Positions 2,838 through 46,027 of a stretch of 64,000 nucleotides of DNA are shown here, piece by piece (the first letter of the stretch is position 1; the number at the start of each line of letters is the position of its first letter). Both the position numbers and the translations under genes were made by a program. The notes under the pieces are model-generated. The model saw only the letters and a program-made list of their open reading frames with translations, had not been told where the DNA came from and ran no database searches. The stretch is from Christiangramia crocea (lineage in GTDB: Bacteria > Bacteroidota > Bacteroidia > Flavobacteriales > Flavobacteriaceae). The stretch covers positions 62,001 through 126,000 of the forward strand of contig NZ_JAJSON010000026.1 of assembly GCF_022410465.1 (NCBI RefSeq). The letters run 5' to 3'.

Positions 2838-2875
2838 GTCATGCTCCACCGATAATTATAAGGAGGTTTCAGCAT
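2838..2875. repeat. Degenerate REP-like hairpin (GTCATGCT...CAGCAT family)
   Basis: GTCATGCT at 2838-2845 and TTTCAGCAT at 2867-2875 match the two ends of the common flavobacterial GTCATGCTGAAC...TTTCAGCAT repeat, with CCACC and GGAGG forming an imperfect inner stem. A related copy lies at 38679-38771. The match is partial, so confidence is low. Confidence 0.35.
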
Positions 2876-36999: not shown

Positions 37000-37677
37000 A
37001 TGCAGAATTTTTCTAAATTTGTGAATGATATCACCTCTGGTTTTACTCCGGTAATAGGTGGAGATTATAAACAGGAGGACTATGCTTACATAGATCTTTC
37101 GGAAAATAATCCGGAATTGTTAAGGCTTGAGGTTGCTTCTTCGGAAGCATTTTCTGTTTTTATTTCTGAGTTCTTAAAGAATAAGAATGCTAAAGCTGCT
37201 TATGGCGGTTATAATGAGCTCAGAACTTTGTATAACCGAAGTGAACTCTTCAATAATATCCAGGCTAATCGAAATATTCATATAGGTCTGGATATCTGGG
37301 TGCCGGCCTTTTCTGAAATTATAAGTCCGCTAGAAGGCAAAATACACAGCTTTAAGGATAATGATAACTTTGGGGATTATGGTCCTACCCTTATCCTGGA
37401 ACATTCAAATGAGGGTCGTAAGTTTTTTACTTTATACGGGCATTTAAGCAGAAAGTCATTGTCTGATCTCAGTGTGGGCCAAACTGTTAAGGCAGGTGAA
37501 AAGATAGCTGAACTGGGCGATTTCGATGAAAACGGCGATTATGCACCACATTTACATTTCCAGGTGATAGAAGATCTTAAGGGAAATACGGGGGATTTCC
37601 CCGGGGTCATAAAAAAAGAGGACCTGGACAATTATTTAAAAAACTGTCCGGATCCTAATTTGCTTTTGAAAATTTGA
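37000..37677 (+). CDS. M23 family peptidase-like protein
   Basis: 225 residues, no signal peptide. The M23 metal-binding pattern is complete: HIGLDIW (about 92-98, ligands H and D), YGHLS, and PHLHFQ near residue 184. The usual LytM fold spans about 88-200. Without a signal peptide it either is cytoplasmic or is exported by an unrecognised route; M23 enzymes normally cut peptidoglycan cross-bridges. Related cytoplasmic M23 domains occur fused to kinase or aminotransferase domains in other proteins, so a non-wall role is possible. Confidence 0.8.
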   Translation: MQNFSKFVNDITSGFTPVIGGDYKQEDYAYIDLSENNPELLRLEVASSEAFSVFISEFLKNKNAKAAYGGYNELRTLYNRSELFNNIQANRNIHIGLDIWVPAFSEIISPLEGKIHSFKDNDNFGDYGPTLILEHSNEGRKFFTLYGHLSRKSLSDLSVGQTVKAGEKIAELGDFDENGDYAPHLHFQVIEDLKGNTGDFPGVIKKEDLDNYLKNCPDPNLLLKI

Positions 37678-37719
37678 TTTTTCTCTGAAACTAAAATTGA
37701 AACCACGTTGATTTAGTTC

Positions 37720-37756
37720 AAAGTCATTTCGAAGGAACGAAGGGACTGAGAAATCT
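37720..37756. repeat. REP-like element (left copy), GTCATTTCGA family
   Basis: Begins AAAGTCATTTCGA and ends GAGAAATCT. The same ends occur inverted at 38074-38103, so the two copies bracket the GIY-YIG pseudogene. Confidence 0.75.
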
Positions 37757-37772
37757 GAATTGAGAATTCTTT

Positions 37773-38068
37773 TCATAAATTATCAATTTCTATAAACTGC
37801 CAATTCGGATTAAATTCCTCAATCAATTTTACTTTTTTCTCTCTTAGCCATTTTTAATGGGTTTTTCTCTTAAAATTACTTCTGAGGAAATTTCGAATTT
37901 TTCATAGAAAACAAGATGGTAGCAATTGTACTTCCCGGCAAAAGACTTTTTAGCATTCATACTTTCCTGAAAATGCTGGTCTACTCTACGTGAAAGATTA
38001 TTCGTGATGCCAATATAAAGCATGGTCTTTTGAATATTCGTGGTTATGTAGGCAAAATATTCTTTCAT
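37773..38068 (-). pseudogene. Frameshifted single-domain GIY-YIG nuclease gene (unit 1)
   Basis: From ATG 38068 the frame runs 74 codons: YFAYITTNIQ, MLYIGITNNLSRRVDQH and LREKPIKNG, then stop. If one A is restored in the run AAAAA before TGG, the frame continues KWLREKKVKLIEEFNPNWQ and ends at 37773, giving the normal ~98-residue length and the classic C-terminus of stand-alone GIY-YIG proteins. The Y, Y-G and Arg positions of the nuclease are present. So this is either a one-base-deletion pseudogene or a sequencing error. It sits exactly between inverted REP copies, 16 bases from one and 5 from the other. Native role of this protein class is unknown. Confidence 0.85.
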
Positions 38069-38073
38069 AAGGT

Positions 38074-38103
38074 AGATTTCTCCCTTCAGTCGAAATGACT
38101 TTA
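38074..38103. repeat. REP-like element (right copy), GTCATTTCGA family
   Basis: AGATTTCTC at its left end and TCGAAATGACTTT at its right end are the reverse complements of the two ends of the 37720-37756 copy. Confidence 0.75.
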
Positions 38104-38110
38104 CAAATTT

Positions 38111-38587
38111 TTATTTTTTTCTCACAAAAAGAGCAACTATCGCAGAAGTTACTACTCCCACCACCAGAGAGAAAAAGAAAGACTGGAGTATATAGGACTG
38201 AAGGTTAAAATAACCTTCGGCCGCTTCCCGGGTCATTGCACCACTTTCAACTGAATAGTCTATCACATTTGGGAAATAATCGGGCGTTATGAATTCATGG
38301 GTTATATACTGAGCTAAAGGTGAGAAAATGGCTACCACCACACTAATGATGATCCCGGAAATAAATCCCTGTGTCCAGGTCATTTTGCCTTCATAGAAAT
38401 TCTTTCTTTTATCCAGAAGTGCGAAGACATACAGCACGATAGCTACAATTGCAAAAAGATTAGTATAGATAGCATGTTTAGAGATGTTCTCGTCATGCCA
38501 TCCCAGGCCTTTTTCGAGGAACATCCAGAGTAGTGCCACAATGCTGAAGATAATACCCCATTTGATTTCGATAGAGAATTTTTTCAT
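38111..38587 (-). CDS. DUF4199 membrane protein
   Basis: 158 residues with four hydrophobic helices (about 10-24, 42-60, 73-97, 132-155). The pattern matches DUF4199, an inner-membrane family of unknown function common in Bacteroidota (WGIIFSIVALLWMFLEK, KMTWTQGFISGIIISVVV). It stands alone between the GIY-YIG/REP unit and a REP-split terminator. Confidence 0.85.
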   Translation of the reverse strand: MKKFSIEIKWGIIFSIVALLWMFLEKGLGWHDENISKHAIYTNLFAIVAIVLYVFALLDKRKNFYEGKMTWTQGFISGIIISVVVAIFSPLAQYITHEFITPDYFPNVIDYSVESGAMTREAAEGYFNLQSYILQSFFFSLVVGVVTSAIVALFVRKK

Positions 38588-38650
38588 TGAAATGTTTGAT
38601 TGGTTTCAATGTTAAAATTAGTAAAATTCTCGATCTGATCTGGAAGTATA

Positions 38651-38794
38651 AAAAAAGCCTGTTTAAAAACTTAATTACGTCAAGCTGAACTTGTTTCAGC
38701 TTTTCATTGATTCTAATTTCAATTATGAGAGATCCTTAAATAATTCCGATAGTTCTCGGAACAGGATGACGAATTCCAGCTTTTAAGACAGGCC
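38651..38794 (-). terminator. Terminator of the DUF6249 gene with REP inserted in its loop
   Basis: On the minus strand GCCTGTCTTAAAA (38794-38782) pairs with TTTTAAACAGGC (38668-38657, one bulge) and is followed by TTTTTT. The 112-base loop holds a REP-type element, suggesting insertion into an older, compact terminator. Confidence 0.6.
38679..38771. repeat. Composite REP element, GTCA-GCTGAAC family
   Basis: Outer ends CGTCA and TGACG are inverted. Inside are two hairpins: AAGCTGAA with TTCAGCTT (38682-38702), and TTCCGA with TCGGAA (38744-38761). Two inverted palindromes joined by a spacer resemble the REPIN arrangement. Confidence 0.6.
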
Positions 38795-38817
38795 TGTGAT
38801 GAAATTTCTAAAAGGAT

Positions 38818-39168
38818 CTATGCGTCCTCGTTTAGTTTTCTGGTGGCAAAATAGCCGGCAAATAGACCAAGTCCGGCTAGAAGGAAAATAGTTCCGGGAT
38901 AAGCCACATCTTCATCTACTCCCATATTGTTGCTTAATAGGTTGGCAATGAAAATCCCCACTCCTATACCTACTAAAAGCAAAGCCAGGTTTATTACGAT
39001 AACTTTCCATACCGGAGTTACATGTTTCCTTTTGCTGTAGAATATGCTTGCATCGGCTCCCTTTTCAATAAGAGCAAGACGTTCGCGGTTCCTGGCAGAG
39101 ATGTACAAATAATACATTCCGAAAATAACCCCGAAAATGATTGGCATAATAATTACTTCTGATCCCAT
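38818..39168 (-). CDS. DUF6249 membrane protein
   Basis: 116 residues: a hydrophobic first helix (about 5-24), the family block YLYISARNRERLALIEKGAD, then two helices (about 52-73 and 88-107). The function of DUF6249 is unknown. It is transcribed divergently from the second ECF sigma gene, 139 bases away, so it might belong to that regulon; this is inference. Confidence 0.82.
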   Translation of the reverse strand: MGSEVIIMPIIFGVIFGMYYLYISARNRERLALIEKGADASIFYSKRKHVTPVWKVIVINLALLLVGIGVGIFIANLLSNNMGVDEDVAYPGTIFLLAGLGLFAGYFATRKLNEDA

Positions 39169-39307
39169 GATTTCTTGTTTTTAATGTGAAAATAATTGTT
39201 CGTTTGCTATTAGGACGCCGGGATCTCATATCCGGTTACAAAAAAATGTAAATTTATTTTGAAAATCTTTTGTAACCGATGAGCTAATCCCATCGTCTTA
39301 TGTAATA

Positions 39308-39895
39308 ATGAGCAAGAACACTGACCAAGAATTGATTGATAAGATCCTCACTGGGGATGCCGCCGTATTTGGTGAGCTGGTAGATCGTTATCAAAATTTT
39401 GTGTTTACCATTGCCATTAGAATGCTTAAAGTATCCGAAGAGGCTGAAGAAGTTGCTCAGGACAGTTTTATAAAGGCCTTTGAGTCTTTATCCAGTTTTC
39501 GGGGGGAAGCTAAATTTTCGACCTGGTTATACCGTATAGTGTATCATAAAGCCCTGGACAGGATAAAAAAGAATAAACGCCAGCAAACTTATGAGATCAT
39601 TGAAGAGGTTACAGATGATAGTCTGGACCATATTGAAAACGGACTGGAGTATTTGCTTTCGGAAGAAAGGAGCAGGGTGATCAACGACTGTATTAGTATG
39701 TTGCCGGAAGAAGAGGCCGCTATTATAAGTTTATATTATTTTGAGGAGCAATCGGTAAAAGAGATCGCAGAGGTCACAAATTTGACAGAAGAGAATATTA
39801 AAATTAAATTGTATCGTAGCCGGAAAAAACTATTTTCTTTACTTGAAGGCTATATCAAACCAGAAATATCAAAGAGAAATGGAAAAGCAATTTAA
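39308..39895 (+). CDS. ECF RNA polymerase sigma factor (operon 2)
   Basis: 195 residues. Region 2 (FVFTIAIRMLKVSEEAEEVA, QDSFIKAFESL, FSTWLYRIVYHKALDRIKKN) and region 4 (LPEEEAAIISLYYFEEQSVK, then a KIKLYRSRKKL recognition helix) are complete. The downstream membrane protein overlaps its 3' end by 17 bases and is the probable anti-sigma. The length and lack of additional domains are normal for the group. Confidence 0.93.
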   Translation: MSKNTDQELIDKILTGDAAVFGELVDRYQNFVFTIAIRMLKVSEEAEEVAQDSFIKAFESLSSFRGEAKFSTWLYRIVYHKALDRIKKNKRQQTYEIIEEVTDDSLDHIENGLEYLLSEERSRVINDCISMLPEEEAAIISLYYFEEQSVKEIAEVTNLTEENIKIKLYRSRKKLFSLLEGYIKPEISKRNGKAI

Positions 39896-40265
39896 CAGGG
39901 AAGATAAGCTGATGAAAAAGTTGCTGAATGAAGCAGGTACGGAAAGCCCTTCAGCAGATTTCAAAAGCAGGATCATGATGGTAGTGGAAAACAGGAATGC
40001 GACAGTTAAGCCTTACCAGCCGCTTATCCCGAAATTCATGTGGTATGTAGTCGTAACATGTCTCATATGTTCGGTTGCCGGACTATATGTAATGTATGCT
40101 GATATTTCCTTAAGCTGGTCTTTTGACTTTAAAGTTCCCAGATATATGGATATGCCTAGAATAGATCTTTCCAGAACTATGCAATACGCGATCGCCTTTA
40201 TAGCCCTGTTCTTCCTGGAAATCCCTTTTCTTAAGAGGTTTGTGGACAGGCAGTATGGACTTTAA
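39879..40265 (+). CDS. Small membrane protein, putative anti-sigma partner
   Basis: I start at ATG 39879 (MEKQFNREDKLMKKLL) rather than 39843, to limit overlap with the sigma gene. The 128-residue product has a charged N-terminus, a helix (about 53-76) and a second helix (about 98-118) with a short tail. The N-terminal LLNEAGTESPSADFKSRIM is typical of flavobacterial proteins following ECF sigma genes. Role as anti-sigma is inferred from position and topology. Confidence 0.72.
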   Translation: MEKQFNREDKLMKKLLNEAGTESPSADFKSRIMMVVENRNATVKPYQPLIPKFMWYVVVTCLICSVAGLYVMYADISLSWSFDFKVPRYMDMPRIDLSRTMQYAIAFIALFFLEIPFLKRFVDRQYGL

Positions 40266-40267
40266 TT

Positions 40268-40292
40268 GTCGCACTGAGCCTGTCGAAGTGCA
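40268..40292. repeat. REP palindrome, CTTCGACAGGCTCA family, left of GIY-YIG unit 2
   Basis: GCACTGAGCCTGTCGAAGTGC (40271-40291, minus-strand core CTTCGACAGGCTCA) with GCACT/AGTGC arms. It lies three bases after the anti-sigma gene and 18 before the GIY-YIG start. Confidence 0.8.
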
Positions 40293-40309
40293 TTTTATTG
40301 AATGGAATC

Positions 40310-40614
40310 ATGAAATTATATTTCGTTTATATACTTCAATGCAATGATGACTCATACTATGTAGGAATGACATCAAATCTAAAAGAAAGAATTGAAGAAC
40401 ATAATTTAGGGAAATTTCCTGAAGCTTATACTTATAGAAGAAGACCTTTGGATTGAAGTGGTTTGAAGAGTTTACTAATCCTAATATAGCTTTAGACTGG
40501 GAAAAGAAAATTAAAGGCTGGAGTAGAAGAAAGAAAGAAGCACTGATTTTAAAGGATTGGAAGAGATTAGTGATTTTATCTAAGAATTATACGCAGTTCG
40601 GTAAGTCTGAATAA
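40310..40614 (+). pseudogene. Frameshifted single-domain GIY-YIG nuclease gene (unit 2)
   Basis: ATG 40310 opens MKLYFVYILQCNDDSYYVGM, TSNLKERIEEHN and YRRRPLD, then TGA at 40454. If one T is restored in GGATTG the frame continues LKWFEEFTNPNIALDWEKKI, KGWSRRKKEALILKDWKRL and stops at 40614. The total of about 101 residues and the VYI...YYVGMT and Arg motifs are those of stand-alone GIY-YIG proteins. As in unit 1, a single base is missing. It is surrounded by palindromes of the CTTCGACAGGCTCA family. It is not similar enough to unit 1 to be a recent duplicate. Confidence 0.85.
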
Positions 40615-40627
40615 GTAAATTTCCCGG

Positions 40628-40649
40628 CCTTCGACAAGCTCAGTCCGCC
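40628..40649. repeat. REP copy right of GIY-YIG unit 2
   Basis: Contains CCTTCGACAAGCTCAGTCCG, in the opposite orientation to the left copy at 40268-40292, so the pseudogene is bracketed by inverted copies. Confidence 0.75.
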
Positions 40650-40687
40650 AAATTTATTATATCAGGTTTATAATTCGGCATGCTGAC

Positions 40688-40758
40688 CCTTCGACAGGCT
40701 CATCCTTCGACAGGCTCATCCTTCGACAGGCTCATCCTTCGACAGGCTCAGGATGGCA
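40688..40758. repeat. Tandem array of a 16-base REP unit
   Basis: Three perfect copies of CCTTCGACAGGCTCAT begin at 40688, 40704 and 40720; a fourth at 40736 ends CTCAGGATGGC and closes a CATCC/GGATG hairpin. No spacers separate the copies, so this is not CRISPR; it looks like slippage expansion inside a REP. Confidence 0.9.
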
Positions 40759-40775
40759 TTAAGTTGAAGTATTTG

Positions 40776-40800
40776 TTGCACTGAGCTTGTCGAAGTGCAA
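40776..40800. repeat. REP palindrome beside the secA terminator
   Basis: Arms TTGCACT (40776-40782) and AGTGCAA (40794-40800) around GAGCTTGTCGA. Same orientation as the 40268-40292 copy. Confidence 0.8.
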
Positions 40801-40812
40801 TGCGATTGAATT

Positions 40813-40844
40813 AAAAATCCTGAAGTGAAAACTTCAGGATTTTT
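40813..40844 (-). terminator. secA terminator
   Basis: AAAAATCCTGAAGT (40813-40826) and ACTTCAGGATTTTT (40831-40844) pair perfectly around GAAA. It lies 23 bases after the secA stop and could act in both directions. Confidence 0.9.
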
Positions 40845-45797: not shown

Positions 45798-45851
45798 TGT
45801 AAATGACTTATAGTAGGGACAATATAGAAAAGATTTTTAGAAGTTCAAAGT

Positions 45852-45876
45852 TCATCCTTCGACATGCTCAGGATGA
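45852..45876. repeat. Solitary REP palindrome, CTTCGACA-GCTCAGG family
   Basis: TCATCC (45852-45857) and GGATGA (45871-45876) flank TTCGACATGCTCA. It is the same family as the copies around GIY-YIG unit 2, 5 kb away. Confidence 0.75.
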
Positions 45877-46027
45877 CAATTACAGGTTTCTAACAGTAGG
45901 TTGAGTTGACCTTCAATTCCATTCGGAGGAATAGAAAAAAATCCATTTAAAATTCATTATTGAAGGGGATACTGAAAAATGAAATGATTCTTAACTTGTT
46001 ACAACTCACAAAAGGTACTCCCTACTG

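What the first reader, a model, noticed from the sequence alone, without database searches (positions are those of the whole stretch)
37720..40800. Hypothesis: GIY-YIG/REP partnership analogous to RAYT/REPIN
In Proteobacteria REP palindromes are tied to RAYT tyrosine transposases of the IS200/IS605 group. Here two independent loci pair a stand-alone GIY-YIG nuclease with its own palindrome family, and solitary copies of the same families lie elsewhere (45852, 38679, 2838). A nicking GIY-YIG enzyme that recognises hairpins could spread or maintain the palindromes. I do not know of a described system of this kind; two loci are too few to prove it.
Basis: inference. Interest (0 to 1): 0.72.

Follow-up and report, generated by a model that had tools for sequence, protein, structure and literature searches.

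The report
Nuclease genes paired with hairpin repeats
Small genes for a DNA-cutting enzyme, found in many bacteria, often sit between two copies of their own hairpin-like DNA repeat, which points to an overlooked kind of mobile DNA and a possible source of some common bacterial repeats.

Summary

Of 119 stand-alone GIY-YIG genes from this genome and relatives, 77 share an exact word of at least 14 nt between their flanks, against 3 of 457 control ORFs. Where both flanks could be labelled, palindrome family follows nuclease clade at unrelated sites: 10 changes on the tree, the minimum, against at least 17 in 1000 shuffles. Of 80 named loci from several phyla, 43 have GTCA-stem-loop-stem-TC hairpins pointing outwards on both sides, against 2 of 200 controls, with covarying stems. 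Gene and palindromes are present or absent together at several orthologous sites. The Y1 transposase family, to which RAYTs belong, was not detected in 16 of 24 congeners.

Copy number rises with the cognate gene only weakly. Cutting and movement are inferred. It works like RAYT/REPIN with an unrelated enzyme; ten library searches showed no paper describing it.

The parts
37723..37756 (+). family A palindrome, long form (GTCATTTCGA...GAGAAATCT), GTCA end pointing away from the gene
   Evidence: sequence; same pattern at G000:C18:99724-99755
37817..38068 (-). broken GIY-YIG gene of clade A (ORF 37844-38068, 74 aa, then in-frame stops)
   Evidence: 122 bits to the clade A profile, 1 TGA and 2 TAA inside; PF01541 6.9e-14
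38074..38099 (-). family A palindrome, short form, inverted relative to 37723
   Evidence: G000:C18:100075-100098
38111..38587 (-). DUF4199-like membrane protein gene, one side of the insertion site compared in 22 species (family name recalled, not from a call)
37000..37677 (+). M23-peptidase-like gene, other side of that site (family name recalled, not from a call)
38679..38770 (.). solitary REPIN-like pair of family H: GTCAAGCTGAACTTGTTTCAGCTT at 38679-38702, and an inverted half with a small hairpin in its loop at 38744-38770 (assignment by eye)
   Evidence: sequence; stems; H family
40271..40291 (-). family B palindrome GCACTGAGCCTGTCGAAGTGC upstream of the second gene
40310..40614 (+). 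broken GIY-YIG gene of clade B, open at 40310-40456 in one frame and at 40438-40614 in another
   Evidence: 81.8 and 86.3 bits to the clade B profile
40630..40642 (+). family B core, downstream
   Evidence: C18:102630-102642
40684..40757 (+). array of four family B cores spaced 16 nt
40778..40798 (-). family B palindrome GCACTGAGCTTGTCGAAGTGC closing the array
45850..45878 (+). solitary family B palindrome
2838..2875 (+). solitary family H-like palindrome GTCATGCT...TTTCAGCAT with an altered loop
   Evidence: assignment by eye

Best explanation
A GIY-YIG gene and the inverted palindromes at its ends form a minimal selfish unit, and solitary palindromes and palindrome pairs are its gene-less (non-autonomous) forms, as REPINs are to RAYT. 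Shown here: the bracketing, the outward GTCA orientation in the D/H design, pairing of each nuclease clade with its own palindrome family, stem covariation, REPIN-like pairs, selection on the protein, and presence or absence of gene plus palindromes together at several orthologous sites. Inferred: the nuclease, a bare GIY-YIG domain whose model resembles UPF0213 and, weakly, the branched-DNA nuclease Slx1, recognises its own hairpin (on exposed single strand or as a cruciform) and cuts at it. Because GIY-YIG enzymes are not known to form a covalent DNA link (recalled), the host's repair must do the joining, most likely by copying the unit from a neighbouring or sister palindrome, which would explain local tandem copies. 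Loss by recombination between short repeats in the two palindromes leaves a solo palindrome.
For: Flank sharing 77 of 119 against 3 of 457, and 51 of 80 against 10 of 199 in named genomes. Outward GTCA hairpins on both sides 43 of 80 against 2 of 200; four scrambled heads gave 0 on both sides. Clade-family match at the parsimony minimum for the 31 both-sided labels. Clade-A profile hits outside the training genomes: 25 of 29 loci read (of 42 listed places) carry an A, F or C palindrome within about 300 nt, 8 of the 9 best family A; 58 control windows held 8 such hits. Pairing at six stem positions 0.83-0.88 against 0.34-0.68 with shuffled partners. Orthologous site in 22 species: 33-38 nt and bare in 4; 8 with a clade-A gene, 7 of them with A palindromes on both sides. 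Homologous Sphingobium plasmids: intact unit, decayed gene with both palindromes, solo palindrome, empty site. In families A and H most palindromes end 14-28 nt before the domain start and start 4-5 nt after the stop codon. dN/dS 0 to 0.32 in the 11 of 18 pairs where dS is not saturated. Y10, Y21, G23, R31, E68 invariant in 47 proteins (that these are catalytic positions is recalled). Fold: 1zg2 (E 2e-4), then Slx1 weakly (E 0.03 and above). Y1 transposase family not detected in 16 of 24 congeners; of its 11 loci 0 have these palindromes on both sides, 2 have one.
Against: No cutting, hairpin binding or transposition is shown. Copy number follows the gene only loosely: G004 and G006 have about 90 H cores without an H gene, gene A also predicts H copies (p = 0.017) and gene H predicts A copies (p = 0.039), B is p = 0.054, and independent pairs are too few. 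No target-site duplication or direct jump was seen; G003/G005 against G001 can be read as loss between direct repeats as well as gain. 47 of 119 genes lack a both-sided label and 28 of 59 tree representatives were set aside for that; when one-sided labels are let in the tree needs 14 changes instead of 10. Palindromes without the gene occur at the same orthologous site in 2 species by pattern and 3 by eye. In the relatives' set the strict GTCA hairpin is mainly family H, and the window's own A and B copies have no perfect stem of 6 bp with a loop of up to 10 nt. In the named set inward-pointing hairpins also occur (18 upstream, 20 downstream of 80).
Confidence: 0.6

Rival explanations
1. Free-standing homing endonuclease genes whose landing sites happen to be repeats: the palindromes are made and spread by something else, and the nuclease gene homes into them.
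For: GIY-YIG is a homing-endonuclease domain (a TIGR01453 group I intron endonuclease hit well below its cut-off). A related class sits beside tRNA genes with a partial tRNA copy, as if aimed at fixed host sites. Solo palindromes exist where the gene is absent.
Against: Bare sites without any palindrome exist beside filled ones. No other dispersal enzyme was found: the Y1 transposase family was not detected in 16 of 24 congeners; other enzyme families were not searched. No separate DNA-binding domain, whereas homing members typically carry NUMOD domains (PMC1564403, passages).
Confidence: 0.22
2. A cellular partnership: the nuclease trims or controls hairpins at its palindromes (DNA or RNA) as a repair or regulatory function, or to regulate its own gene, without mobility.
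For: Purifying selection; weak resemblance to Slx1 and UvrC; palindromes lie a few nt from start and stop codons in families A and H.
Against: Patchy presence, decayed copies, tandem copies, a different family in the same site in another species, and faster divergence than neighbours (GIY 62-76% against 77-87%) look selfish rather than housekeeping.
Confidence: 0.1
3. Passive association: intergenic repeats accumulate round any small dispensable or mobile gene.
For: The palindromes also occur tens of times per genome away from the gene, and some control ORFs have them.
Against: Control ORFs of the same stretches and another mobile family in the same genomes (0 of 11 with the palindromes on both sides, 2 with one) lack the both-sided pattern; the clade-specific match and the orientation are not explained.
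Confidence: 0.05

Closest known systems
REP-associated tyrosine transposases (RAYT) with REPs, BIMEs and REPINs (Nunvar 2010, PMC2817692; abstract and 12 passages read)
   Same: One gene between two inverted palindromes with a fixed head sequence; enzyme and palindrome co-diverge; many solitary copies; alternating arrays; enzyme evolves faster than its neighbours.
   Different: Enzyme is GIY-YIG, not a Y1 (IS200/IS605-type) transposase; head is GTCA, not GTAG or GTGG; seen in several phyla, whereas that paper found RAYTs meeting its criteria only in gammaproteobacteria; copy-number link weaker here.
Free-standing GIY-YIG homing endonucleases such as phage T4 Seg proteins (recalled) and intron enzymes (superfamily paper PMC1564403, passages read)
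   Same: Same catalytic domain; small gene that, in one branch here, lies beside tRNA genes.
   Different: Single ~95-aa domain without a DNA-binding module; bracketed by a repeated palindrome family; no intron seen.
UPF0213 proteins (1zg2, 1ywl) and the Slx1/UvrC GIY-YIG domains
   Same: Nearest solved sequences (1zg2, 1ywl, 1yd6) and folds (1zg2, then Slx1 weakly); Slx1 entries include branched-DNA structures by their titles.
   Different: No palindrome partners reported in what I read; Slx1 needs a partner subunit (recalled).
Neisseria dRS3 repeats (ATTCCC-N8-GGGAAT; consensus recalled, no paper read)
   Same: The GIY-YIG locus of one N. gonorrhoeae record has 10 copies of this word in 1.66 kb, 0 in 500 shuffles: same design as family D.
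   Different: Known to me only as repeats; no paper of the library holds both GIY-YIG and dRS3.

Membership tests
RAYT/REP | Y1 HUH (IS200/IS605-like) transposase | tested here: not met
   Proteins hit PF01541, not PF01797
[quoted passage not shown]
   43 of 80 by the strict hairpin definition, controls 2 of 200; 72 of 119 with one label on both sides, 19 of the 72 being the tRNA class. Not universal, unlike RAYT as described
RAYT/REP | Enzyme and REP co-diverge | tested here: met
   10 changes, the minimum, against 17 or more in 1000 shuffles for 31 both-sided labels; 14 changes with one-sided labels
RAYT/REP | Cognate gene presence predicts REP abundance | tested here: inconclusive
   p 0.007, 0.015, 0.054; cross-effects; 3-4 independent pairs
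RAYT/REP | REPs in alternating pairs (BIME or REPIN) | tested here: met
   H: 15 close pairs among 62 cores in G003, 12 of the 15 being -/+ at 28-47 nt, random mean 0.11; A long/short pairs
RAYT/REP | GTAG/GTGG-type head | tested here: not met
   Head is GTCA
RAYT/REP | Enzyme cleaves REP hairpins | not testable with these tools
   Needs purified protein
Free-standing GIY-YIG homing endonuclease | GIY-YIG catalytic domain with conserved residues | tested here: met
Free-standing GIY-YIG homing endonuclease | Separate DNA-binding module | tested here: not met
   98-aa model has the GIY-YIG fold plus C-terminal helices; no other domain in three proteins scanned
Free-standing GIY-YIG homing endonuclease | Unoccupied alleles carry the enzyme's target | tested here: inconclusive
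   Solo palindromes occur at some empty sites, none at others
Insertion sequence or MITE with target-site duplication | Short direct duplication at the insertion site | tested here: inconclusive
   None seen by eye in the compared sites, but flanks are 80-95% identical and blurred

The most novel reading that the evidence does not exclude
A separate class of bacterial mobile element, found in several phyla: a one-domain GIY-YIG nuclease acting as the sole dispersal enzyme of GTCA-headed hairpin repeats, an origin for repeats such as GTCATTCCCGCGnnnGCGGGAATCCA and Neisseria dRS3, with a sister branch that uses tRNA genes as its hairpin. It would be a second, independent invention of the REP-plus-enzyme lifestyle with different chemistry.
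Probability: 0.5. Interest if true: 0.93.

Novelty: new variant of a known kind. Interest (0 to 1): 0.84.

Why it matters
Hairpin repeats of this type are widespread in bacterial intergenic DNA and mostly lack a known maker (recalled). If a tiny GIY-YIG nuclease makes or keeps them, this is a second and chemically different REP system, it gives a ready way to assign repeats to enzymes by genome reading, and it gives a testable role to GIY-YIG proteins annotated only as nuclease family, hypothetical or excinuclease-like proteins.

Tried and rejected
Rejected: the RAYT family as hidden maker (Y1 transposase matches in 8 of 24 congeners; palindromes on both sides of 0 of 11 loci, one hit in 2 of 11; eight families tested). 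Rejected: chance or generic intergenic enrichment. Considered and not claimed: insertion into a pre-existing palindrome as the rule (bare sites exist). Tried without clear result: copy number with phylogenetic control; search of phages with one Neisseria flank (no match); VIA-align (not on the machine). A first context clustering chained unrelated loci and was replaced, whose clusters are still coarse (52). Weak defence-library hits were not followed up. In one search one held-out locus (L339, cut by a contig end) may be misplaced; it counted as a miss.

Literature: ten searches showed no paper linking GIY-YIG with REP palindromes, RAYT, REPIN or dRS3; two listings were capped (30 of 39, 15 of 63). 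The only paper with both GIY-YIG and 'extragenic palindrom' (PMC9465073, passages read) has GIY-YIG and RAYT as separate pangenome rows. Most subscription papers and all preprints were not searchable.
Full report
What is in the window. Two stand-alone GIY-YIG genes, both broken, lie about 2.3 kb apart. The first (37817-38068, minus strand) is flanked by inverted copies of GTCATTTCGA...GAGAAATCT (family A); the second (40310-40614, plus, two frames) lies among copies of a CTTCGACAGGCTCAG palindrome (family B). Seven of the 14 B cores in the 3.9-Mb genome sit round this one gene and the reversed control pattern has none. The genome also has an intact gene with family C on both sides, a 5'-truncated one with family D on one side, and two genes beside tRNA genes or tRNA remnants.

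Is it more than these two loci? I searched PF01541 in 59 genomes and fetched 97 stretches round listed places whose open frame was at most 200 aa (94's list, 3 from this genome); the listing was cut, so weaker places are missing. This gave 119 genes with the window's two. Their two 200-nt flanks share an exact word of at least 14 nt in 77 of 119, against 3 of 457 other ORFs of the same stretches; at 12 nt 89 of 119 against 12 of 457.

Does each nuclease have its own palindrome? Labels were given from flank DNA alone, by patterns I wrote after reading flanks; 72 of 119 genes carry the same label on both sides (19 of them the tRNA class), 47 do not (29 of these have some label on one side). Taking one gene per genomic context and protein group left 59 representatives, 31 of them labelled on both sides with 11 labels. 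The protein tree needs 10 label changes, the minimum possible; 1000 shuffles gave a mean of 22.2 and a minimum of 17. With one-sided labels let in (43 rows by their names) it needs 14. The tree rests on 100 columns and many forks are weak. As a check outside the training genomes, clade-A profile hits drawn from the phylum (42 listed places, 29 new loci read) carried an A, F or C palindrome in 25 of 29, and the nine best were A in eight; 58 control windows held eight such hits in all.

A common design across phyla. Flanks share a word of at least 14 nt in 51 of 80 against 10 of 199 controls. The palindromes read GTCA-stem-loop-stem-TC with GTCA pointing away from the gene: upstream 50, downstream 59, both 43 of 80 (pointing inwards: 18 and 20); controls 12, 15 and 2 of 200; four scrambled heads 0 to 2 of 80 and never both. 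In the relatives' set the strict form is on both sides of 17 of 119 against 0 of 461, and it is mainly family H (16 of 17 H genes have at least one); A, B, E, F and K are looser relatives of this design. Taking 115 candidates without asking for pairing, six stem positions pair in 0.83-0.88 of cases against 0.34-0.68 with shuffled partners, with three or more pair types at each position: real covariation.

REPIN-like pairs and local arrays. In G003 the 62 H cores form 15 pairs within 100 nt; 12 of the 15 are minus-plus at 28-47 nt; random placement gives 0.11 pairs. Family A alternates a 32-nt and a 24-nt form in inverted pairs, and the gene sits between such pairs; in A and H the next palindrome often starts 4-5 nt after the stop codon (5 of 8 and 8 of 13). 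Several genomes carry two or three related nuclease genes in tandem or within 4 kb.

Gain and loss. The site between the two window genes at 37000-37677 and 38111-38587 was read in 22 of 24 congeners: 33-38 nt and bare in four; a clade-A gene in eight (two of them with stops inside), seven with A palindromes on both sides and one with a single A palindrome left; a clade-F gene with F palindromes in three; only palindromes or remnants in five (two by pattern, three by eye); two unclear. Three genomes about 92-95% identical differ at two sites in an H-type unit; one of these can equally be read as loss between direct repeats. On homologous Sphingobium plasmids the site between fnrL and a response-regulator gene holds an intact unit (TomTYG46 and TomMM15 read; four others by tblastn and full-length DNA match), a frame-shifted gene with both palindromes intact (TomTYG73), a solo symmetrical palindrome that reads like the outer halves of both (TomTYG64; a slightly changed copy in TomTYG74), other or no repeats (TomTYG65, TomTYG72), or about 40 bare nt (S. 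herbicidovorans). Shinella shows presence and absence of the whole unit, with flanks only about 81% identical.

The protein. Single GIY-YIG domain, invariant Y10, Y21, G23, R31, E68 in 47 proteins; model pLDDT 91.8; nearest solved structures UPF0213 BH0048 (E 2e-4, the only hit under 0.001) and, more weakly, Slx1 and UvrC. dN/dS 0 to 0.32 in the 11 of 18 pairs with unsaturated dS; clade-A proteins are 62-76% identical where their neighbours are 77-87%. So the genes are selected and fast-evolving.

Copy number. Among 24 congeners, H cores have median 59.5 in 8 genomes with an intact H gene and 12.5 in 14 without (one-sided p = 0.007; two genomes with only fragments set aside); A 23 in 7 against 5 in 15 (p = 0.015; two set aside); B 18 in 5 against 10 in 18 (p = 0.054; one set aside); no correction for three tests. 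But gene A also predicts H (p = 0.017) and gene H predicts A (p = 0.039), G004 and G006 have about 90 H cores without the gene, and only 3-4 independent pairs exist. This is suggestive, not proof. The Y1 transposase family (PF01797), to which RAYTs belong, was detected in only 8 of 24; its 11 loci have these palindromes on both sides in 0 and a single hit in 2.

Mechanism. Shown: unit architecture, specificity of pairing, joint presence and absence at several sites, selection. Inferred: structure-selective cutting at the hairpin, copying by host repair, loss by recombination between repeats. Membership: not RAYT (wrong enzyme, wrong head), not a classical homing endonuclease (no DNA-binding module). 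It works like RAYT/REP. I rate it a new variant of a known kind; if the enzyme proves to move the repeats it would be a class of its own.

Noticed in passing
own genome L136 (G000:C19) and L137 15499-15744; L062, L080, L086, L089, L096-L099, L106, L125, L127, L130, L134: A sister branch of the nuclease sits beside tRNA genes (Val, Pro, Met, Arg, Leu, His; a tRNA was found within 700 nt of 24 of 33 genes examined) together with a partial tRNA copy; in many of these the copy breaks at a small GC hairpin that replaces the anticodon or another arm, by eye.
   Followed up: partly
window 38744-38770, 2838-2875; L110 6672-6737; L092 1512-1612; matches listed: Small hairpins such as TCCCGAnnTCGGGA replace the loops of some A, F and H palindromes, as in the tRNA copies: possible cut-and-repair scars or a second nested repeat (by eye).
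   Followed up: no
L381 (Neisseria gonorrhoeae record, 1.66 kb; filed as a plasmid but 2.17 Mb long): GIY-YIG gene inside an array of 10 ATTCCC-N8-GGGAAT words, the recalled dRS3 consensus; may give a known Neisseria repeat its enzyme.
   Followed up: partly
L361, L360 (Sphingobium plasmids): Solo palindrome GTCACCCCGGGTCAAGCCCGGGGTGAC (exact in L361, slightly changed in L360) with GTCA at both ends, reading like the outer halves of the two palindromes that flank the gene elsewhere: footprint of loss or an original target.
   Followed up: partly
window 37678-38110 and its orthologues: One short convergent gap is used by nuclease units of different families (A and F) and by H repeats in different species: a possible safe-site hotspot.
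   Followed up: partly
window 40813-40844: Perfect 14-bp stem with GAAA loop just after the secA-like gene, probably its terminator (gene name recalled).
   Followed up: no
L383 (Planktothrix agardhii plasmid p1): A GIY-YIG gene of this group lies between an MmeI-type restriction gene and DISARM drmA.
   Followed up: no
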